IMG/VR virus record: IMGVR_UViG_3300049846_001447
Location: 1 to 32,411 of that record
DNA: 32,411 bases
Source of the DNA: a virus
Direction: 5' to 3' (one strand)
In this document: positions 391-25,392 of the stretch, one piece after another
Layout: each line of letters starts with the position of its first letter
How positions within the stretch are numbered: the first letter of the stretch is position 1
Notes under the pieces: generated by a model
Seen by the model: the letters and a program-made list of their open reading frames with translations, nothing else
What the model was told of the DNA's origin: nothing
The model's database searches: none
Translations under genes and position numbers: made by a program

Positions 391-831
391 ATGATTTATG
401 TTCATAAAAATTTTGTTGATAAAAGTTGTTGTAATCAACTAATAGAGCATTATAAAAGTAATATTTCAAAAGCAATTACATTTAGAGATACCTTTCCACT
501 TTCAATTTCAAGAATAGAAAATATTACAGATTCTCTTGAAAATCTTTGTTCTTTATTTGGAGAACAATCAAAGTTGGATTTATGTCAAATTGTAAAATGG
601 CCTGTTGGATCAAAACAACATCCACATTTTGATGAGGTTGAAGACACATTTGCATCAATAATTTATCTTAATGATGATTATGCTGGAGGAAAAACTTGTT
701 TTGAAAACATAGAAATTTCTCCAGAGTCTGGAACTATGGTTTTTTTCACAGGCAATAAAATTTTACATTGGGTTAAAGAAGTAAAAAATAATGATAGGTA
801 CACTCTAGCACATTGGTTTGTTAGAAAATAA
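391..831 (+). CDS. 2OG-Fe(II) dioxygenase, prolyl-4-hydroxylase-like
   Basis: This 146-residue protein has the full set of ligands of the 2-oxoglutarate/Fe(II) oxygenase double-stranded beta-helix. The HxD motif is H79-F80-D81, the distal histidine is H126 (in ILHWVKEV) and the 2OG-binding arginine is R136 (in DRYTLAHWF). The segment IIYLNDDYAGGKTCFE followed by PESGTMVFFTG is typical of the prolyl-4-hydroxylase-like branch. Such enzymes hydroxylate an unactivated carbon while decarboxylating 2-oxoglutarate; the substrate is not evident. It is one of three dioxygenases in the window, with those at 12501 and 13146. No clear ribosome binding site precedes ATG 391. At 146 aa it is compact, close to a minimal catalytic domain. 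The family call is firm; the target is unknown. Confidence 0.88.
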   Translation: MIYVHKNFVDKSCCNQLIEHYKSNISKAITFRDTFPLSISRIENITDSLENLCSLFGEQSKLDLCQIVKWPVGSKQHPHFDEVEDTFASIIYLNDDYAGGKTCFENIEISPESGTMVFFTGNKILHWVKEVKNNDRYTLAHWFVRK

Positions 832-845
832 GCACAAATACTTAG

Positions 846-1475
846 ATGAAATCAGATTTTTATATAGATAAGGTAAGTAAGGAAGAAGTTAAAGACCTTC
901 TTTATACCTACCACTACCTTAAAGATGAATCCAAAGATTTTAAATCTGGTTTCAATTATGGACTTTACCGAAACACTTTCACAGATGTCCTTAGAATTGG
1001 CAACTGTCTTGGTGCTTGCATTTTTACTGGTCTCCCAGTTCCAGAAATAGCAAAAGGAGCATTTGGATTAAATCGCAATGAACAACAAGGACTTTTCGAA
1101 CTTTCAAGACTTTGCATCGAACCTGGTACGCAGTCACGAGAATATAACATCACTTCTTGGTTTGTGTCACGAGCGATTAGACAACTTCGGAAAGATACTG
1201 AAGTTAAAGCAATCCTTTCTTATGCTGATTCAAATCACCATTCTGGTACAATTTATCGCGCTTGCAACTTTAAGTACTACGGTCTCACGGATAGAAAAAA
1301 AGATTTCTATTATTCAGACGGAACTAAACACTCTCGTGGAAAAGTAAAAGGTTCTGAAGGTGAATGGAAAGAAAGAAGTAGAAAGCATAGATACTTGATG
1401 GTCTTTGATAAGCAACTACAAAAACGCTTGACGTGGAAAGAAGAATCGTGGTATAATACTCAAGGCGATACTTAA
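846..1475 (+). CDS. Mom-like GNAT-fold protein, putative DNA-modification enzyme
   Basis: This 209-residue protein resembles the Mom family of phage Mu, a GNAT-fold enzyme that converts adenine in phage DNA to a carbamoylmethylated form and so blocks host restriction. Features that suggest this are the H23-Y24 pair near the N-terminus, the LFELSRLCIEPG strand, and the block from Y126-A127-D128 to the G134-T135-I136-Y137-R138 motif, ending CNFKYYGL. The length is similar to Mom (about 230 aa). The last 60 residues are very basic, which would suit DNA contact. It lies 14 nt after the dioxygenase gene. A sigma70-like promoter lies within its last 50 nt. A generic GNAT acetyltransferase is the main alternative. 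The family resemblance is recalled, not searched. Confidence 0.68.
   Translation: MKSDFYIDKVSKEEVKDLLYTYHYLKDESKDFKSGFNYGLYRNTFTDVLRIGNCLGACIFTGLPVPEIAKGAFGLNRNEQQGLFELSRLCIEPGTQSREYNITSWFVSRAIRQLRKDTEVKAILSYADSNHHSGTIYRACNFKYYGLTDRKKDFYYSDGTKHSRGKVKGSEGEWKERSRKHRYLMVFDKQLQKRLTWKEESWYNTQGDT
1428..1457 (+). promoter_or_regulatory. Sigma70-like promoter inside the 3' end of the mom-like gene
   Basis: TTGACG (1428-1433), an 18-nt spacer and a perfect TATAAT (1452-1457) form a strong host-type promoter. Start of transcription is expected near 1464, just before the stop codon of the mom-like gene. No ORF follows before the terminator at 1500-1527. Confidence 0.55.
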
Positions 1476-12500: not shown

Positions 12501-13136
12501 ATGGCATATCAATCAATTTGGTATTTTACAAGCATTCCAGATAAAATTATTAATATCATCGAAGAGGACCTATCGGAAAATTTTGATCCATTACTGGAGG
12601 ACTCAAAAGTTGGTGGAGGTGATTATGGAACAGTTGACAAAGATAAAAGAAATGCGAGAAATGCTTGGGTTCCTACAACACATTGGATTGCAGGATTTGT
12701 ATGGCATTATGTTCAACGTGCAAATCGTGAGAATTTTCTATATGATCTAACTAATGTTGATGGCGAATCGCTTCAATATACAGTTTATGGTGAAGGTGAG
12801 TATTATGGGTGGCACAACGATTCTGGACTTTCTGCACATTACAAACCAATATCATCTGGTAATCGTGGACATGGTGAGCAATTGTTTCAAGATTTTGTAA
12901 ATGAGAATTGTGAAAAAGTAAGAAAACTTTCTTTTAGTTTGCTTCTATCAGATCCAGACACCTATGAAGGTGGAAATTTGCAACTTTTAGATGAAGCAGG
13001 AAAATCTTATATTGTTCCTAGACAAAGAGGAACTATTGTTCTCTTTGATTCTCGGACACAGCACCGCGTTCAAAAAGTAACTAAAGGTGTAAGAAAATCA
13101 GTTGTTGGATGGGTAACTGGTCCACGTTGGAAATGA
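12501..13136 (+). CDS. 2OG-Fe(II) dioxygenase, PKHD/prolyl-hydroxylase type
   Basis: This 211-residue protein shows the iron-binding HxD as H105-N106-D107 (in YYGWHNDSG), the distal histidine H188 (in RTQHRVQKV) and the 2OG-binding arginine R198 (in GVRKSVVGW). RKLSFSLLLSDPDTYEGGNLQ is the typical strand pair of PKHD-type hydroxylases, as in PiuC. Start and length are well supported by AGGAG 8 nt upstream and the promoter at 12442. The next gene, also a dioxygenase-like protein, follows after 9 nt, so the two form an operon. The substrate is unknown; fibre residues, host proteins or a small metabolite are all possible. Its host-type promoter suggests earlier expression than the fibres around it. 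Confidence 0.88.
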   Translation: MAYQSIWYFTSIPDKIINIIEEDLSENFDPLLEDSKVGGGDYGTVDKDKRNARNAWVPTTHWIAGFVWHYVQRANRENFLYDLTNVDGESLQYTVYGEGEYYGWHNDSGLSAHYKPISSGNRGHGEQLFQDFVNENCEKVRKLSFSLLLSDPDTYEGGNLQLLDEAGKSYIVPRQRGTIVLFDSRTQHRVQKVTKGVRKSVVGWVTGPRWK

Positions 13137-13145
13137 GGTAATAAA

Positions 13146-13862
13146 ATGGCAGAACAAATGACACTAGAACAAATTGTCTGGCAAGAAAGAGTTAACACTG
13201 GAACATCACAAACAAATAATGAAGAGTTTGATAAAAATGGATACTTAGTTCTAAGAAATCTATGGAATCCACAAGACCTTTATTGTGAACCACCAGAGAT
13301 TAAGGGACAATATAATTATTATGGAAAAATTGATAAATTTTGCCACTTTCCTTTAGAAATGCAAGTTGAAGGATCCACTTCAAGATACTATTGGCCTCCA
13401 TATAAGTTTACACATTCTCAAATTCGTATGAAACTTGAGCAAGCAATTGGTAAGAAACTTTATAATACCTACTATTATGATAGGTTTTATAATCCAGGAC
13501 AAGCATTATCAAATCACGTAGACCGTCCTGCTTGTGAAATCTCAGTGACCATTCACGTAAGCAGTAATGTCAGCAATCCTTGGCCAATCTGGATTAAAAC
13601 ACCAGATACTTATAGTGATGATAAAAAAACTGAGATTATTAAAGAAGGAGAAAATCGTTCTGTGATTCTTCATCCCGGTGATGGAATGATTTATAAAGGA
13701 TGCGAAAGACCACATTGGAGAGAACCACTTCCAAGAGAATATAAAAGAACTTGGTATGGCAAGAAAGTAGAGAAAGAAGGATTGTATTATCATCAAATTT
13801 TCTTTCATTATGTTCTTGCTGATGGCGTTCGAGCTCATTGTGCAGGAGATTGTTCAAGTTAA
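13146..13862 (+). CDS. Second 2OG-Fe(II) dioxygenase-like protein of the pair, 238 aa
   Basis: The core YDRFYNPGQALSNHVDRPAC carries a HxD motif, H124-V125-D126, followed by a CEISVTIHVS strand typical of the double-stranded beta-helix. GDGMIYKGCERPHWREPLP holds a likely distal histidine H190 with R188 or R192 nearby, and YYHQIFFHYVLADG is a C-terminal strand. The first 100 residues have no family I recognise. The gene follows the other dioxygenase by 9 nt and has a TGAGGT ribosome binding site overlapping its stop. The C-terminus is Cys-rich (AHCAGDCSS). I am fairly sure of the fold, less sure that all ligands are intact, and the substrate is unknown. Confidence 0.78.
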   Translation: MAEQMTLEQIVWQERVNTGTSQTNNEEFDKNGYLVLRNLWNPQDLYCEPPEIKGQYNYYGKIDKFCHFPLEMQVEGSTSRYYWPPYKFTHSQIRMKLEQAIGKKLYNTYYYDRFYNPGQALSNHVDRPACEISVTIHVSSNVSNPWPIWIKTPDTYSDDKKTEIIKEGENRSVILHPGDGMIYKGCERPHWREPLPREYKRTWYGKKVEKEGLYYHQIFFHYVLADGVRAHCAGDCSS

Positions 13863-19112: not shown

Positions 19113-22100
19113 ATGAATACCAATCCGATCATTCGTGTAAAGAGATCTCTTGTTCAGGGAAAAGTACCAACTGTTGAACAGTTAGGTCTTGGAGAGATAG
19201 CTATTAACCATTATGATGCAAAAGTATTCATTCGTCAAGATACTCTTGGCGTAGGAATTGGTACAACAGTAGTTCAGATTGGTGTTCAAGGAGTTCAAGG
19301 AACTCAAGGTTTAAGTAATCAAGGTGTTCAAGGTTCTGTAGGAATTCAAGGAAGTTCAGGTGCTCAAGGTGATGTAGGTTCTCAAGGAACTTCAGGAGCA
19401 CAAGGAACTTCAGGGATTCAAGGTGATGTAGGTTCTCAAGGAACTTCAGGAGCACAGGGTACATCAGGAATTCAAGGTGATGTAGGTTCTCAAGGAACTT
19501 CAGGAGCACAGGGTACATCAGGAATTCAAGGTGATGTAGGTTCTCAAGGAGCATCAGGAATTCAAGGTGATATTGGATCTCAAGGTTCTATAGGAGCACA
19601 AGGAGCATCAGGAGCACAAGGAACATCGGGGATTCAAGGTTCTATAGGAGCACAAGGAACTTCAGGAATTCAAGGTGATGTAGGTTCTCAAGGAGCATCA
19701 GGAGCACAAGGAACATCGGGGATTCAAGGTTCTATAGGAGCACAAGGAACTTCAGGTATCCAAGGTGATATTGGATCTCAAGGTTCTATAGGAGCACAAG
19801 GAACTTCAGGTATCCAAGGTGATGTAGGTTCTCAGGGCACATTTGGAACTCAAGGAACGCAAGGAGTTCAAGGAACCGTAGGTATTCAAGGAAACATAGG
19901 TTCTCAAGGTGTTACCGGATCTTTTGGGGGCGCTGCTTTTGATTATACTTTTGATAGTTCCACTGCTGATAGTGATCCGACACAAGGTAAGTTAAGACTT
20001 AATCAAACTGGAATTACTACTGCAACTTATCTTTATATTCATAATGATGACGATAATCTTGTAGATATCACAAGTTTCCTTCAGACCATTGATGACTCAA
20101 CATCTAACATCAAAGGACACTTTACTATTTCTCAAAAGGGTAATCAAGCAAATTTTGGTCTATTTTCAATAGTAGGATTACACACAGAATATACCAATTA
20201 CTTTGCAGTTCCTATTGCATATGTTTCTGGTATTACTACATCATTTGCTAATAATCTTGATATTATTATCACATTCGCAAGAACTGGTGACAAAGGAGAT
20301 ACTGGATTGCAGGGTACTCAAGGAACTATTGGAATTCAAGGTTCATCAGGTGCTCAAGGTACATCAGGTATTCAAGGTGATGTAGGTTCTCAAGGAACTT
20401 CAGGTGCTCAAGGTACATCAGGTATTCAAGGTGATGTAGGTTCTCAAGGAACTTCAGGTATTCAAGGTGCATCTGGTATTCAAGGTTCTTCAGGTATTCA
20501 AGGTTCATCAGGAGCACAGGGTACATCAGGTATTCAAGGTGATGTAGGTTCTCAAGGAACTTCAGGTGCTCAAGGTACATCAGGTATTCAAGGTGATGTA
20601 GGTTCTCAAGGAACTTCAGGTGCTCAAGGTACATCAGCAGCAACTGCAATCACAAATAATACAGACAACTATGTAGTTACTGCAACTGGAAATGGTTCAA
20701 CACCGTTTAATGGTGAAGCAAACTTCACCTTTGATGGGTCAACTGCAAAAGCACCACTTCTTGAATCAACACAATCATCCGGTGATGAGGGTGGAGAACT
20801 AAAATTTAATAAACCAGCAACAAATACCACAATAAACAGTGGTATTGCAATCGATGTTTATCAGGATAAGATTAGATTATTTGAAACCGGTGGAACAAAC
20901 AGAGGTGGTTATTGGGATGTAACTGCATTAGGTGCTGGTGTAACAACTAATTTATTATCTGCAGGAAGCGGTGCTCAAGGAACTTCAGGTTCTCAGGGCA
21001 CTCAAGGTTCTTCTGGGGCACAAGGTGCTGGTGGTGCTCAAGGAACTTCAGGAGCACAGGGAACTTCAGGTGCTCAAGGTACATCAGGAATTCAAGGTGA
21101 TATAGGTGCTCAAGGTACTACAGGCGCTCAAGGTACATCAGGAATTCAAGGTGATATAGGTTCTCAAGGAACTTCAGGAGCACAGGGAACTTCAGGTGCT
21201 CAAGGTACATCAGGAATTCAAGGTGATATAGGTGCTCAAGGTACTACAGGTGCTCAAGGTACTACAGGTGCTCAAGGTACATCAGGAATTCAAGGTGATA
21301 TAGGTTCTCAAGGAACTTCAGGAGCACAGGGAACTTCAGGAGCACAAGGTACTACAGGATCATCTGGAAGTGTTGGTGGAGTTCCTTATACATTCAGTAC
21401 TGATACAAGTTTTGGTGATCCCGGAAATGGTTATCTTAAATATGATAATGCTACAATTGGTTCTGTAACAACAATTCTTATTGATAATAACGATGCAAAC
21501 TCAAACGTTCAAACAACTTGGTATGATACTTGGGATAATAGCACAAATCCAAACCAATATGGATATTTAATTATTCGAGGTGCAGATCCTAATAGCACTA
21601 CAGTTAATGTTTGGAGTATTACTAATCTTGTTGCCAATGAAGGTGGATATTATTCAATTCCTGTTGCACACATTTCTGGTTCATTACCCACTAATAACCA
21701 GCCAGTTGTTGTCGAATTTTCAAGAACTGGTAATATAGGTGCTCAAGGTGCATCAGGTGCTCAAGGTGCTGGTGGTGCTCAAGGTGCATCAGGTGCTCAA
21801 GGTGCTGGTGGTGCTCAAGGTTCTGCAGGAGCACAAGGTGCTGGTGGTGCTCAAGGTTCTGCAGGAGCACAAGGTGCTGGTGGTGCTCAAGGTTCTGCAG
21901 GTTCTGCAGGACCATCAACTGCAATTAATGCGACTGCAGTAACAACTAACGCAACTTTTTATCCAGTATTTGTTGCTGCTGCAGGATCTAACCAAACTCC
22001 TTCCGTAAGAACGACAGCAACGGCATTTAGTTTTAATGCTTCTTCTGGAGATCTTTCAGTTGGTGGAAACGTTACTGCGTATTCTGATAAATCATTAAAA

Positions 22101-22364
22101 GAAAACATCAAAACAATAGACAATGCTGTAGATAAACTGATGAAACTTCGTGGAGTTGAATTTGATAGAATAGATATCGAAGGAAATCCTCATCAAATTG
22201 GAGTCATTGCACAAGAAATTGAAGAGATTATACCTGAAGTTGTTATTACTGACAAAGATGGACTTAAATCAGTTGCTTATGGAAATTTAATTGGTCTAAT
22301 CATAGAAGCATTTAAAGAACAACAAGATCAAATAAACATATTAAAGAAAAAACTTATTGAATAA
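19113..22364 (+). CDS. Collagen-like fibre with S74 chaperone tail, 1083 aa
   Basis: Four blocks of G-X-Y repeats (about residues 57-269, 392-508, 620-755 and 873-933) use triplets such as GAQ, GTS, GIQ, GDV and GSQ, almost without proline. Between blocks 1 and 2 (270-391) and between blocks 3 and 4 (756-872) lies the same type of globular beta domain, with shared segments 'YxVPVAxISG' and 'FxRTGxxG'. A third, different domain lies at about 509-619. Residues 1-56 are an attachment-like head (PIIRVKRSLVQGKVP, then LGLGEIAINHYDAKVFIRQD). The C-terminus is an S74 intramolecular chaperone: SDKSLKENI with S991 and K996, then GVIAQEIEEIIPEVV and a terminal coil. Cleavage before S991 would release a tail of 93 residues. 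A ribosome binding site TGAGGT (19104-19109) supports the start. Confidence 0.9.
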   Translation: MNTNPIIRVKRSLVQGKVPTVEQLGLGEIAINHYDAKVFIRQDTLGVGIGTTVVQIGVQGVQGTQGLSNQGVQGSVGIQGSSGAQGDVGSQGTSGAQGTSGIQGDVGSQGTSGAQGTSGIQGDVGSQGTSGAQGTSGIQGDVGSQGASGIQGDIGSQGSIGAQGASGAQGTSGIQGSIGAQGTSGIQGDVGSQGASGAQGTSGIQGSIGAQGTSGIQGDIGSQGSIGAQGTSGIQGDVGSQGTFGTQGTQGVQGTVGIQGNIGSQGVTGSFGGAAFDYTFDSSTADSDPTQGKLRLNQTGITTATYLYIHNDDDNLVDITSFLQTIDDSTSNIKGHFTISQKGNQANFGLFSIVGLHTEYTNYFAVPIAYVSGITTSFANNLDIIITFARTGDKGDTGLQGTQGTIGIQGSSGAQGTSGIQGDVGSQGTSGAQGTSGIQGDVGSQGTSGIQGASGIQGSSGIQGSSGAQGTSGIQGDVGSQGTSGAQGTSGIQGDVGSQGTSGAQGTSAATAITNNTDNYVVTATGNGSTPFNGEANFTFDGSTAKAPLLESTQSSGDEGGELKFNKPATNTTINSGIAIDVYQDKIRLFETGGTNRGGYWDVTALGAGVTTNLLSAGSGAQGTSGSQGTQGSSGAQGAGGAQGTSGAQGTSGAQGTSGIQGDIGAQGTTGAQGTSGIQGDIGSQGTSGAQGTSGAQGTSGIQGDIGAQGTTGAQGTTGAQGTSGIQGDIGSQGTSGAQGTSGAQGTTGSSGSVGGVPYTFSTDTSFGDPGNGYLKYDNATIGSVTTILIDNNDANSNVQTTWYDTWDNSTNPNQYGYLIIRGADPNSTTVNVWSITNLVANEGGYYSIPVAHISGSLPTNNQPVVVEFSRTGNIGAQGASGAQGAGGAQGASGAQGAGGAQGSAGAQGAGGAQGSAGAQGAGGAQGSAGSAGPSTAINATAVTTNATFYPVFVAAAGSNQTPSVRTTATAFSFNASSGDLSVGGNVTAYSDKSLKENIKTIDNAVDKLMKLRGVEFDRIDIEGNPHQIGVIAQEIEEIIPEVVITDKDGLKSVAYGNLIGLIIEAFKEQQDQINILKKKLIE
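19281..19920 (+). repeat. Collagen-like repeat block 1
   Basis: The block is in-frame G-X-Y triplets, with higher-order units of 36-54 bp such as GDVGSQGTSGAQGTSGIQ. Copies are nearly identical in DNA, so slippage and recombination are expected. Confidence 0.9.
20286..20637 (+). repeat. Collagen-like repeat block 2
   Basis: This is a second G-X-Y block starting GDKGDTGLQGTQ and sharing the GDVGSQGTSGAQGTSGIQ unit of block 1. Confidence 0.88.
20970..21378 (+). repeat. Collagen-like repeat block 3
   Basis: This third G-X-Y block uses GDIGAQGTTGAQGTSG units and repeated 'GCTCAAGGTACTACAGGT' DNA. Confidence 0.88.
21729..21914 (+). repeat. Collagen-like repeat block 4
   Basis: This last, shortest block is made of GAQGAGGAQGSAG units, simpler in composition than the others. 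It directly precedes the S74-bearing C-terminal region. Confidence 0.88.
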
Positions 22365-22390: not shown

Positions 22391-22398
22391 AATAAATA
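22391..22398 (+). promoter_or_regulatory. Late promoter box
   Basis: AATAAATA lies 23 nt before ATG 22422, the usual spacing, which places the glycan-editing pair under late control. Confidence 0.6.
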
Positions 22399-22421: not shown

Positions 22422-23387
22422 ATGAACTTTGTAAAATTTGCCCTTGAAAATGGCGGTGCAATTAAACCTTTACTCATTCCAGAAGAGCATACGAATGGTA
22501 CGGGTCTATGTAATCCATCAGTTTTTGTAGAGAACGGAAAGATATTAGTTAATCTTCGTCATATTCAATATACGCTTTATCATTCAGAGTTAAACAAATT
22601 TGAGCACCAATATGGTCCATTAGTTTATCTCAACCCAGAGAATGACATTACACTCACAACAACTAACTTTATCTGTGAGTTGAATGAGAGTCTAGATATT
22701 TCTCATTGGTCTAAAGTGGATACTTCTGCTTTTGATAAGAAACCTCTATGGGAATTTGTTGGACTTGAAGATGCTAGATTAGTCAAATGGAATGATAAGT
22801 TCTATCTTACTGGTGTTCGTAGAGATTTGGATACGATTGGTACAGGAAGAATGGAACTTTCTGAACTTGAATTTGCAGAGAATTCAGTCAAAGAAGTTTC
22901 AAGATTTCGTATTCCCGGACCACCACCAGATAATGAATATTGCAATAAAAACTGGATGCCTGTTCTAGACCAACCATTTCATTTTGTAAAATGGACCAAC
23001 GGAACTGAAATAGTCAAAACAATTCCAGAAGAGAATCGTACAGAAACTGTAGTTCTAAAGGATTGGGTTCAAGCACCAAAAGATTTAAGAGGTGGTTCTC
23101 AAGTTCTACCATATAAAAATGGTTATCTAGCAATCAATCACGAGACTGATTTGTTTAAATCAGAAGCAGGAAGAAAGAACGCAACATATCGCCATAAGTT
23201 TACATATTGGGATAAGGATTGGAATATTCAGAAGTTTTCTCCTGTGTTCTCATTCCTAGAAAATCAAATTGAATTTTGCTGTGGTATGGCAAAGTATCAA
23301 GATGATTATCTACTCACGTTTGGTGTTCAAGATAACGCAGCATATATTTTAAGAGTTCCTGGTAATTTGTTGGAGGAGTTTGTATGA
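22422..23387 (+). CDS. GH130/GH43-like five-bladed beta-propeller protein, 321 aa
   Basis: The motifs N31-P32-S33 (CNPSVFVENGKILVNLRH), E116-D117-A118-R119 (GLEDARLVKWNDKFYLTG) and a late GMAKYQDDYLLTFGVQDNAA strand fit the repeated blades of GH130-type mannoside phosphorylases and related propeller glycosidases. The NWMPV and LRGGSQVLPY segments occupy places typical of the central blades. The length, 321 aa, is normal for one propeller domain. There is no signal peptide, so it acts in the cytoplasm. Its stop overlaps the start of the glycosyltransferase fusion (ATGA), so the two are made together. It may cleave, phosphorolyse or only bind a glycan; catalytic residues are not proven. The propeller call is moderately firm, the family assignment less so. 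Confidence 0.7.
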   Translation: MNFVKFALENGGAIKPLLIPEEHTNGTGLCNPSVFVENGKILVNLRHIQYTLYHSELNKFEHQYGPLVYLNPENDITLTTTNFICELNESLDISHWSKVDTSAFDKKPLWEFVGLEDARLVKWNDKFYLTGVRRDLDTIGTGRMELSELEFAENSVKEVSRFRIPGPPPDNEYCNKNWMPVLDQPFHFVKWTNGTEIVKTIPEENRTETVVLKDWVQAPKDLRGGSQVLPYKNGYLAINHETDLFKSEAGRKNATYRHKFTYWDKDWNIQKFSPVFSFLENQIEFCCGMAKYQDDYLLTFGVQDNAAYILRVPGNLLEEFV

Positions 23388-25342
23388 ATAAACTTAAAAA
23401 TTTTCCTTCAGTGATTTGTATAACCCTCGAACAAGACATTCAAAGACAAGATTTAATTATTTCACGTTTTAACCAATATGAAATTAAACCTTATCTATTC
23501 AAATCAAAAAAATATACACAATCGAATGATATTATAACTGGGAAATATGAGCACCAAGTTAATGGACCTACAAAGGGATGCATTGTTTCACATTTAAAAG
23601 CACTTAAAGAGTGGTATGAAACCACTAATGAGAGTTATCTATTTGTCTGTGAAGATGATTTAAGTTTAGATACAGTTTCTTATTGGAATTTTACTTGGAA
23701 TGATTTTATTGATTCACTTACGAATGATTGGGACATTGTTCAACTTCAAATGGTTCGTGATGAATTTACAAAAACAAACTTCCATGTTCGTGAATGGAAT
23801 AGTTGGGGAGCGACTGCTTATATTATTAAAAGGCATTATGCAAAGAAAATCATCGATACTTACATAAAAAATGACACGTATCATCTTGAAATTCCTAATA
23901 GTGATGTAATGCCAATCAACGAAAACATTCTATATACAGTTCTTGGGAAGGCATACTCTGTTCCTCTTTTTATTGAAGACATAGGAGTTTCATCAACTCA
24001 CACAGAGGATAAGGAACTTAAAGGGGGACAAAAACCAAATCACGTTTATTCTTCAAACTTTATTTTGCAATGGTGGAAAGAAAATCAAGCAGACATTAAA
24101 ACAATTATGAATATTTCAACTGATCCTTTGGTTGCTTATGCATATGATACTGAAAATGCAATCAGAAACTTTGAACTTGCACGTTGGTATCACAAAAGGA
24201 AACAAACTGCATCAGCAATTACTTATTACTTAAGAGCAGCAGATCGTACAGAAGATTCGCTACTTGCTTATGAATGTCTGCTTCATATGGCTTCTTGTTT
24301 TCACGATCAAAAGAACAGAAATTATACAGTCAAAGGATTATATCAACACGCAATCAATCTACTTCCAAAGAGACCTGAAGCATATTTCCTCCTTTCAAGA
24401 CACGAAGAATGGAATAAAATGTACTCAGACTCTTACACTATTGCAACTCTAGGTCTTAATGTATGTGATTTTGATTTAGAACCACTAACAACATTCACAG
24501 ATTATCCTGGTAAATATGGTCTTATCTTTGAGAAGGCAGTGTGCTCCTATTGGTGGGGTAAGTCTCAGGAATGTCGTGACTTATTTCAAGATCTAAAGAA
24601 TAATTATGAGTTAGATAAAACTCATTATGATTTGGTAGCAATGAATCTTCAGAATCTTGGTTGCTGGATTCCAAAGAGTATTAAATATGAGAAATCAAAA
24701 TATGAGGAGTTTAAGTATAAGTTTCCTGGTTTAGAAAACATTGAGAAAAGTAATGGACAAGCATTGCAAGATATGTTTATCTTATCGATTCTCAACGGAA
24801 AGAGGAATGGAACTTATCTAGAGATTGGAGCACAGGAACCAATCTTCCAGAACAATAGTGCTATTTTAGAAAAAGACTTTGGTTGGAAAGGAGTTTCCAT
24901 AGAAATTCTTGAGAATCTCTGCAAGATGTTTGCTGAACAAAGGTCCAATCCCATTATTTGTAAAGATGCGACAACGATTGATTATGAGAAACTATTGAAT
25001 GAACATTATACAACGAAAGAGATTGATTACCTACAATTGGATTGTGAGCCTTCTAAAACTACATTTGAAATTCTATTAAGTATTCCCTTTGAACAATACA
25101 AGTTTGCTGTGATTACTTACGAGCACGATCATTATGTGGATATGACTGGAACTTATCGTACAAAATCCAGAAACTACTTAAAGTCTTGTGGATATGAATT
25201 GGTAGTAGCAAATGTATCACAAAATGATAAAACACCATTTGAAGATTGGTGGGTACATCCAGATCTTGTAGATTCAAAAACAATCAAAAAATTCAAAAGT
25301 ATTAAAGAAGTGACTGATGTAAGAGACTATTTTTACCAATAG
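23384..25342 (+). CDS. Three-domain fusion: GT25-like glycosyltransferase, TPR-like helices, FkbM-like methyltransferase
   Basis: Residues about 1-225 resemble family 25 glycosyltransferases (LPS or collagen galactosyltransferase type): the start FPSVICITLEQDIQRQDLII, GCIVSHLKALKEWYE, and the nucleotide-sugar/metal motif E90-D91-D92 in CEDDLSLD. Residues about 255-425 are helical pairs like tetratricopeptide repeats (NFELARWYHKRKQTASAITY, then YQHAINLLPKRPEAYFLLS). Residues about 447-640 resemble an FkbM-family SAM-dependent methyltransferase: AlqDMFILSI-type start, TYLEIGAQEP (from T477), GWKGVSIEI, then DYLQLDCEPS. A coupled beta-propeller gene precedes it by 4-nt overlap. Together they could build and methylate a glycan on fibres or host polysaccharide. 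Domain calls are from motif memory; the acceptor is unknown. Confidence 0.82.
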   Translation: MNKLKNFPSVICITLEQDIQRQDLIISRFNQYEIKPYLFKSKKYTQSNDIITGKYEHQVNGPTKGCIVSHLKALKEWYETTNESYLFVCEDDLSLDTVSYWNFTWNDFIDSLTNDWDIVQLQMVRDEFTKTNFHVREWNSWGATAYIIKRHYAKKIIDTYIKNDTYHLEIPNSDVMPINENILYTVLGKAYSVPLFIEDIGVSSTHTEDKELKGGQKPNHVYSSNFILQWWKENQADIKTIMNISTDPLVAYAYDTENAIRNFELARWYHKRKQTASAITYYLRAADRTEDSLLAYECLLHMASCFHDQKNRNYTVKGLYQHAINLLPKRPEAYFLLSRHEEWNKMYSDSYTIATLGLNVCDFDLEPLTTFTDYPGKYGLIFEKAVCSYWWGKSQECRDLFQDLKNNYELDKTHYDLVAMNLQNLGCWIPKSIKYEKSKYEEFKYKFPGLENIEKSNGQALQDMFILSILNGKRNGTYLEIGAQEPIFQNNSAILEKDFGWKGVSIEILENLCKMFAEQRSNPIICKDATTIDYEKLLNEHYTTKEIDYLQLDCEPSKTTFEILLSIPFEQYKFAVITYEHDHYVDMTGTYRTKSRNYLKSCGYELVVANVSQNDKTPFEDWWVHPDLVDSKTIKKFKSIKEVTDVRDYFYQ

Positions 25343-25364: not shown

Positions 25365-25392
25365 ACCTCCCAGAACCGACCTGGGAGGTTTT
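25365..25392 (+). terminator. Terminator fused to a promoter-like element
   Basis: ACCTCCCAG (25365-25373) pairs perfectly over 9 bp with CTGGGAGGT (25381-25389) around AACCGAC, and TTTT follows. It ends the glycan-editing operon. Confidence 0.85.

What the first reader, a model, noticed from the sequence alone, without database searches (positions are those of the whole stretch)
22422..25342. Coupled glycan module with a GT25-TPR-FkbM fusion
One polypeptide joins a sugar transferase, helical repeats and a methyltransferase, and is translationally coupled to a propeller glycosidase/phosphorylase-like protein. Making and capping a sugar (methylation) in one chain, next to glycosidase-like activity and fibre genes under a late box, suggests virion glycosylation or host-glycan remodelling. 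I do not know a described system with this exact layout.
Basis: partly seen in the sequence, partly recalled or inferred. Interest (0 to 1): 0.7.

Follow-up and report, generated by a model that had tools for sequence, protein, structure and literature searches.

The report
Phage sugar-transfer operon with swappable domain
An uncultured cyanophage-like virus carries, next to a tail-fibre gene, a two-gene unit that probably builds and methyl-caps a sugar on its own fibre proteins, and the sugar-transferring domain has been exchanged as a precise DNA cassette while the rest stayed put, which would let such phages change their sugar coat.

Summary
22422-25342 is a two-gene operon: T4-type late box (22391), propeller gene, ATGA overlap, GT25-TPR-FkbM fusion, hairpin terminator (25365-25389). 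The propeller's predicted fold is that of GH130 mannoside phosphorylases and GT108 mannosyltransferases; its catalytic Asp (D117) is present in all 49 aligned sequences. The fusion's N-terminus has the GT25 fold (Mimivirus R655, human COLGALT1), with SHxK and EDD in 30 of 30; the TPR resembles that of O-GlcNAc transferase; the methyltransferase keeps its SAM motifs. The layout is not unique: at least seven viral contigs share it. Across 52 non-redundant loci the propeller and one TPR family stay together (49 of 51), while GT25, GT2, GT7, GT17, FkbM, radical-SAM and other domains are reshuffled. The window's GT25 domain was replaced as a ~660-bp cassette (87% to 60% to 87% DNA identity, boundaries ~23400 and ~24060; AU p=0.0095); a second exchange (L011/L012) is clearer (p=7e-5). 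Tail-fibre genes lie upstream in about half of the loci, in nine within ~110 bp. Best reading: late cytoplasmic glycosylation of a virion fibre, TPR holding the substrate. No sugar on a virion has been shown; host-surface remodelling is the main rival.

The parts
22391..22398 (+). T4-type late promoter box AATAAATA, 31 bp upstream of the propeller start
   Evidence: homology to close relative L002 begins exactly here; box conserved in 24 of 46 loci
22422..23387 (+). Five-bladed propeller enzyme, GH130/GT108-like (mannoside phosphorylase / beta-mannosyltransferase clan)
   Evidence: AlphaFold pLDDT 92; Foldseek and VIA-align to GH130 Z up to 23.5, GT108 Z 18.6; profile-profile with bacterial GH130 E 1.6e-7
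22770..22772 (+). Catalytic Asp D117 in GLEDAR, equivalent of BT3780 D142 / UhgbMP D104
   Evidence: invariant 49/49; aligned with GIED of GH130; role of the residue from PMC4599007
23384..23387 (+). ATGA overlap of stop and start codons (translational coupling)
   Evidence: overlap with the next gene in 40 of 46 non-redundant loci
23384..25342 (+). GT25-TPR-FkbM fusion protein, 652 aa
23384..24088 (+). GT25 glycosyltransferase domain (aa 1-235)
   Evidence: Pfam GT25 27.2 bits over cut-off; fold R655 Z 17.4 and COLGALT1 Z 16.9
23651..23659 (+). EDD metal/donor motif of the GT25 domain (aa 90-92)
   Evidence: 30 of 30 aligned sequences
23400..24060 (+). Exchanged DNA cassette covering the GT25 domain
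   Evidence: sliding identity 87/60/87%; domain identities; AU test p=0.0095
24131..24673 (+). TPR superhelix (aa 250-430)
   Evidence: profile E 3e-18; fold of OGT TPR Z 17.2
24746..25303 (+). FkbM (Methyltransf_21) SAM-dependent O-methyltransferase domain (aa 455-640)
   Evidence: Pfam; motif conservation
25365..25389 (+). Terminator hairpin (9-bp stem) followed by TTTAT, ending the two-gene unit
   Evidence: MFE -19.4 kcal/mol, z -3.7
19113..22364 (+). Neighbour and candidate substrate: collagen-like tail fibre (174 GXY triplets) with Peptidase_S74 tip
12501..13862 (+). 2OG-Fe(II) oxygenase plus phrog_2954 gene pair, found just upstream of the propeller in other lineages

Best explanation
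A late-expressed, cytoplasmic glycosylation unit that decorates a virion fibre protein. The TPR superhelix holds the fibre (inferred). The GT25 domain transfers a sugar to Ser/Thr (or a hydroxylated residue) or to a first sugar (fold and motifs shown, substrate inferred). The GH130/GT108-like propeller adds or trims a beta-mannose-type residue using Man-1-P or GDP-Man (fold and catalytic residues shown, donor inferred). The FkbM domain O-methylates and so caps the glycan (family shown, target inferred). Propeller plus TPR are the constant chassis; the sugar-transferring domain is an exchangeable cassette, so that the glycan type can change without touching the chassis (exchange shown, change of glycan inferred).
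For: Late box, ATGA coupling and terminator define one unit. Catalytic residues of all three enzymes conserved. Fold matches. A known precedent for the division of labour: in Caulobacter FlmG the TPR part binds flagellin and the GT part glycosylates it (PMC7591256); O-GlcNAc transferase is likewise TPR plus GT. Fibre, tail or virion genes upstream: S74/collagen fibre within 6 kb in 17 of 36 loci, within ~110 bp in nine loci (window, L004, L011, L050, L072, L092, L104, L111, L143), none at nine stand-alone GT25 loci; other upstream neighbours are virion structural or tail-fibre assembly genes. Cassette exchange.
Against: No glycan has been seen on any such virion. About half of the loci have no recognised S74/collagen fibre within 6 kb; some have aminotransferase or other GT genes there, as a surface-polysaccharide island would. 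The nine control loci are few and not matched for genome position. The inter-domain geometry of the fusion model is uncertain (pTM 0.43).
Confidence: 0.55

Rival explanations
1. Host-surface remodelling: the enzymes alter LPS, O-antigen or capsule of the infected cell, blocking superinfection or freeing progeny from receptor-bearing debris.
For: GT25 is an LPS-biosynthesis family; glycosyltransferases in the host-recognition cluster of pelagimyophages were read this way (PMC7029224); some islands hold GT2/GT7/GT17/WavE domains, an aminotransferase or an alginate lyase.
Against: Late timing is poor for superinfection exclusion; no membrane or lipid-carrier enzymes were seen in the unit; TPR substrate-binding domains are typical of protein glycosyltransferases; fibre genes adjoin the unit in many loci.
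Confidence: 0.25
2. Collagen-type glycosylation: a 2OG oxygenase hydroxylates collagen-like repeats and the GT25 domain galactosylates the hydroxylysine, as COLGALT1 does (a special case of fibre glycosylation).
For: COLGALT1 and Mimivirus R655 are the nearest GT25 folds; collagen-like fibre next door; 2OG oxygenase at 12501, whose relatives lie just upstream of the propeller in other lineages.
Against: The GXY repeats hold almost no Lys or Pro (top triplets GAQ, GTS, GIQ, GSQ; one GDK and one GPS among 174), so Thr/Ser is the likelier acceptor; many loci lack collagen-like genes.
Confidence: 0.1
3. Glycosylation or methylation of phage DNA or of a small molecule.
For: Phage glycosyltransferases are known to hypermodify DNA (cited in PMC12619734); a Mom-family DNA modification gene lies at 846-1475.
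Against: GT25, GH130 and FkbM are, to my knowledge, not DNA-modifying families; late, fibre-linked position; the Mom gene is 21 kb away.
Confidence: 0.07

Closest known systems
FlmG of Caulobacter crescentus (TPR plus GT-B flagellin O-glycosyltransferase; PMC7591256)
   Same: TPR part selects a fibre-forming protein, fused GT part glycosylates it in the cytoplasm
   Different: The GT is a different fold (GT-B, not GT25/GT-A); no fused methyltransferase; no propeller partner; cellular
GT25 enzymes: COLGALT1, Mimivirus R655, bacterial beta-1,4-galactosyltransferases, stand-alone cyanophage GT25 (phrog_2835)
   Same: Domain fold, SHxK and EDD motifs
   Different: Fused to TPR and FkbM and exchanged as a cassette; acceptor unknown; 20% identity to COLGALT1 in the structural alignment
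GH130 mannoside phosphorylases/mannosidases and GT108 Leishmania mannosyltransferases
   Same: Five-bladed propeller over the whole length; catalytic Asp and -1 subsite residues in place
   Different: 10-16% identity, below the Pfam GH130 cut-off; found in operons with GT and methyltransferase domains
Glycosyltransferases of the host-recognition cluster of pelagi- and cyanomyophages (PMC7029224)
   Same: Hypervariable region with tail fibres and GTs in T4-like marine phages
   Different: That work names GT8 and LPS genes, not this propeller-TPR chassis
TPR proteins beside the propeller in cultured cyanophages S-SCSM2R and DSL-LC02
   Same: Same propeller, TPR and FkbM-type domains, overlapping genes
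   Different: No GT25 in front; C-terminal DUF6445 or radical-SAM/SPASM instead; not described as a system in the records

Membership tests
GT25 glycosyltransferase | Family profile match over the curated cut-off | tested here: met
   27.2 bits against 24; phrog_2835 8.5e-47
GT25 glycosyltransferase | Conserved SHxK and EDD motifs | tested here: met
   30/30 aligned sequences
GT25 glycosyltransferase | Fold of solved GT25 enzymes | tested here: met
   9crz Z 17.4 and 9evj Z 16.9 over about 190 residues
GT25 glycosyltransferase | Transfer of Gal/Glc from UDP-sugar | not testable with these tools
   needs an enzyme assay
GH130 / GT108 propeller clan | Five-bladed propeller matching over the full length | tested here: met
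   Z 23.5 (9fj8) and 18.6 (6q4x), model range 1-321
GH130 (Pfam PF04041) | Sequence score over the curated cut-off | tested here: not met
   23 bits against 26; so filed as clan relative, not as a GH130 member
GH130 / GT108 propeller clan | Catalytic Asp and -1 subsite residues | tested here: met
   D117, N31, R46, E116, H240, F285, D304 aligned with GH130 columns, each 49/49; roles from PMC4599007
GH130 phosphorylase | Three basic phosphate-binding residues | tested here: inconclusive
   H240 aligns with the GH130 His and R163, R223 are conserved, but pairing of the two Arg is inferred from spacing only
FkbM methyltransferase (PF05050) | Profile match | tested here: met
   22.7 bits = cut-off for the isolated domain; 21 of 26 members match at E 0.1; in the full protein 19.8, below cut-off
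FkbM methyltransferase | SAM-binding motifs kept | tested here: met
   E480, G482, E507 (24/25, one D), D553
TPR protein | Repeated helix pairs, TPR superhelix | tested here: met
   profile 3e-18, OGT TPR Z 17.2
TPR-GT protein glycosyltransferase (FlmG/OGT-like function) | TPR binds the protein that is glycosylated | not testable with these tools
   needs a binding assay

The most novel reading that the evidence does not exclude
A combinatorial glycan assembly line in tailed phages: a fixed propeller-TPR chassis recognises virion fibres, and recombination swaps whole catalytic domains (GT25, GT2/GT7, GT17, FkbM, radical-SAM and others) in and out of the polyprotein, so that related phages display different sugars on the same type of fibre, a viral counterpart of O-antigen serotype switching.
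Probability: 0.35. Interest if true: 0.82.

Novelty: new variant of a known kind. Interest (0 to 1): 0.62.

Why it matters
Glycosylation of virions of marine phages is, as far as the searches here showed, hardly explored. If the chassis acts on fibres, these abundant viruses have a genetically modular way to diversify the sugars on the very part that touches the host, and cultured relatives (S-SCSM2R on Synechococcus WH7803, DSL-LC02) make it testable now. It would also give a mannosyl-transferring or phosphorolytic propeller a biosynthetic role in phages, and a natural series of domain swaps for learning how TPR-guided glycosyltransferases work.

Tried and rejected
Homology of the propeller to solved structures by sequence profile: no true hit; only fold and profile-profile comparison worked. 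Strict link to collagen-like fibres: rejected, fewer than a third of 61 loci have one within the fetched DNA. Donor of the window's GT25 cassette: no relative above 57% found (pattern-seeded scan, not exhaustive). Simple fast evolution of the GT25 domain instead of exchange: not favoured, since the nested position implied by the rest of the protein is rejected (p=0.0095) and the edges are sharp; the looser grouping of the window with all six close relatives was not rejected (p=0.44), so the donor was still a phage of the same wider GT25 group. Cellular origin of the propeller: the matches in bacterial/archaeal bins are mostly on small contigs, one with T4 gp15, so probably phage. The FkbM domain gave no PDB hit by profile and was not covered by the fold search of the fusion (TPR and GT25 rows fill the list). 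Literature: no paper found on this layout; the library holds open-licence papers only.

Full report
What is there. The window is a 32.4-kb viral record, a T4-like cyanophage-type virus by its tail-fibre genes and nearest matches. At 22422-23387 lies a 321-aa ORF and at 23384-25342 a 652-aa ORF; the stop of the first and start of the second overlap as ATGA, with GGAGG just upstream. A late-type box AATAAATA starts at 22391, 31 bp before the first ORF; such boxes occur 10 times on the + strand and once on the -, mostly 27-74 bp before gene starts. A 9-bp hairpin followed by TTTAT closes the unit at 25365-25389 (z -3.7). So it is one late two-gene operon. In 46 non-redundant relatives (the window included) the box recurs in 24 (about 1 expected from the rate) and the propeller overlaps the next gene in 40.

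The propeller. Pfam gives only a sub-threshold GH130 hit. With 49 aligned sequences AlphaFold returns pLDDT 92. The best folds are GH130 mannoside phosphorylases (9fj8 Z 23.5, 5ay9 23.2, 3wau 22.8), then GT108 Leishmania mannosyltransferases/phosphorylases (6q4x 18.6, 6q50 18.3), then GH43. A profile-profile alignment with 28 bacterial GH130 sequences has E 1.6e-7 and pairs GLEDAR with GIEDCR, N31-P32 with NP, R46 with R, H240 with the His of the GWL-YHG segment, F285 and D304 with their counterparts. By motif and spacing the equivalents in BT3780 are N74, R89, E141, D142, F344 and D363; D142N and D363A kill that enzyme (PMC4599007). All are 49/49 in the phage family. The enzyme is therefore probably active on a beta-mannoside-type bond. 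Whether it uses phosphate, GDP-mannose or water is open; annotators of DSL-LC02 called its homologue beta-mannosyltransferase, and one relative's neighbour is a mannose-6-phosphate isomerase/cytidylyltransferase protein (L146).

The fusion. GT25 passes its Pfam cut-off. AlphaFold gives pLDDT 89.5 but pTM 0.43, so the domains are good and their arrangement is not known. The N-terminal domain matches Mimivirus R655 (Z 17.4) and human COLGALT1 (Z 16.9, 20% identity); the middle matches TPR superhelices including that of O-GlcNAc transferase (Z 17.2). The C-terminal domain is FkbM by Pfam. Catalytic motifs are invariant: EDD and SHxK 30/30, FkbM E480, G482 and D553 in every sequence with the domain.

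How common and how built. Scans with each protein gave 80 and 60 viral loci and two annotated cyanophages. Among 52 non-redundant propeller loci, 49 of 51 with enough downstream DNA have a member of the same TPR family within 6 kb; counting only loci found through the propeller, which removes the search bias, it is 21 of 23, plus both cultured phages. The remaining domains vary: GT25-TPR-FkbM (window, L002-L006, L011, L039), TPR-FkbM, TPR-GT25, GT25-TPR, GT2/GT7-GT25-TPR-FkbM, propeller-GT25, propeller-GT17-methyltransferase, TPR-FkbM-DUF6445, TPR-FkbM-radical SAM/SPASM, with GT47 and WavE domains also present.

Domain exchange. Against its nearest relatives (L002-L005) the window's propeller is 90-95% identical, the TPR 90-93%, the FkbM domain 91-94%, but the GT25 domain only 50-53%, although those relatives' GT25 domains are 86-94% like each other. 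In DNA, identity falls from about 87% to about 60% at ~23400 and returns at ~24060: a ~660-bp cassette that is the GT25 domain. The clade of the window with L082/L083/L086/L087 (the same contigs as L003/L004/L002/L005), starred in the TPR+FkbM tree, is rejected on the GT25 domain (p=0.0095). L011 and L012 are 92-93% alike in TPR and FkbM but 49% in GT25, and L012's GT25 groups with GT25 domains of TPR-GT25 proteins (support 98); L011+L012 is rejected (p=6.7e-5). So two exchanges of the sugar-transferring domain are supported.

Target. Upstream genes are mainly tail or virion genes: S74-tipped or collagen-like fibres within 6 kb in 17 of 36 loci; within ~110 bp in nine loci including the window; other upstream genes are virion structural, tail-fibre or fibre-assembly proteins. 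Nine stand-alone GT25 loci have none. TPR-GT proteins with known function modify proteins, and FlmG uses its TPR part to bind flagellin (PMC7591256). Hence virion fibre glycosylation is the best explanation (0.55). Collagen-type hydroxylysine glycosylation is unlikely for this fibre, as its repeats hold almost no Lys or Pro but many Thr/Ser. Host-surface remodelling remains possible (0.25); pelagimyophage glycosyltransferases have been read that way (PMC7029224).

Shown versus inferred. Shown by computation: operon anatomy, predicted folds of propeller, GT25 and TPR, conserved catalytic residues, conserved propeller-TPR pairing, domain exchange, fibre neighbourhood. Inferred: substrates, sugar donors, order of reactions, fibre as target, change of glycan by exchange.

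Noticed in passing
window 391-1475: A small 2OG-Fe(II) oxygenase followed by a Mom-family DNA modification protein (PF25680 E 4e-23), unusual in a fibre region.
   Followed up: partly
window 12501-13862: 2OG-Fe(II) oxygenase plus phrog_2954 gene (named ferrochelatase, no Pfam match) travel as a pair; they sit just upstream of the propeller in L006-L009, L109 and L112 but 9 kb away here.
   Followed up: partly
L143 12959-15112 (phage DSL-LC02): TPR-FkbM fused to a radical-SAM/SPASM domain in the same operon position, followed by a second FkbM gene.
   Followed up: no
L142 12962-14827 and L105 6250-8091: TPR-FkbM fused to DUF6445, a family of unknown function; the context suggests a glycan- or fibre-modifying role.
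   Followed up: no
L054 7946-9058: An alginate lyase family gene (E 5.5e-47) inside the same island, downstream of the propeller and TPR-FkbM genes.
   Followed up: no
L146 3611-4372: Cytidylyltransferase-like plus mannose-6-phosphate isomerase C-terminal domain protein next to the propeller and TPR-FkbM genes, a hint at mannose supply.
   Followed up: no
L144, L145, L146, L147, L148: Propeller relatives in bacterial and archaeal bins lie on small contigs; L147 carries a T4 gp15 homologue, so these are probably phage contigs misplaced in the bins.
   Followed up: partly
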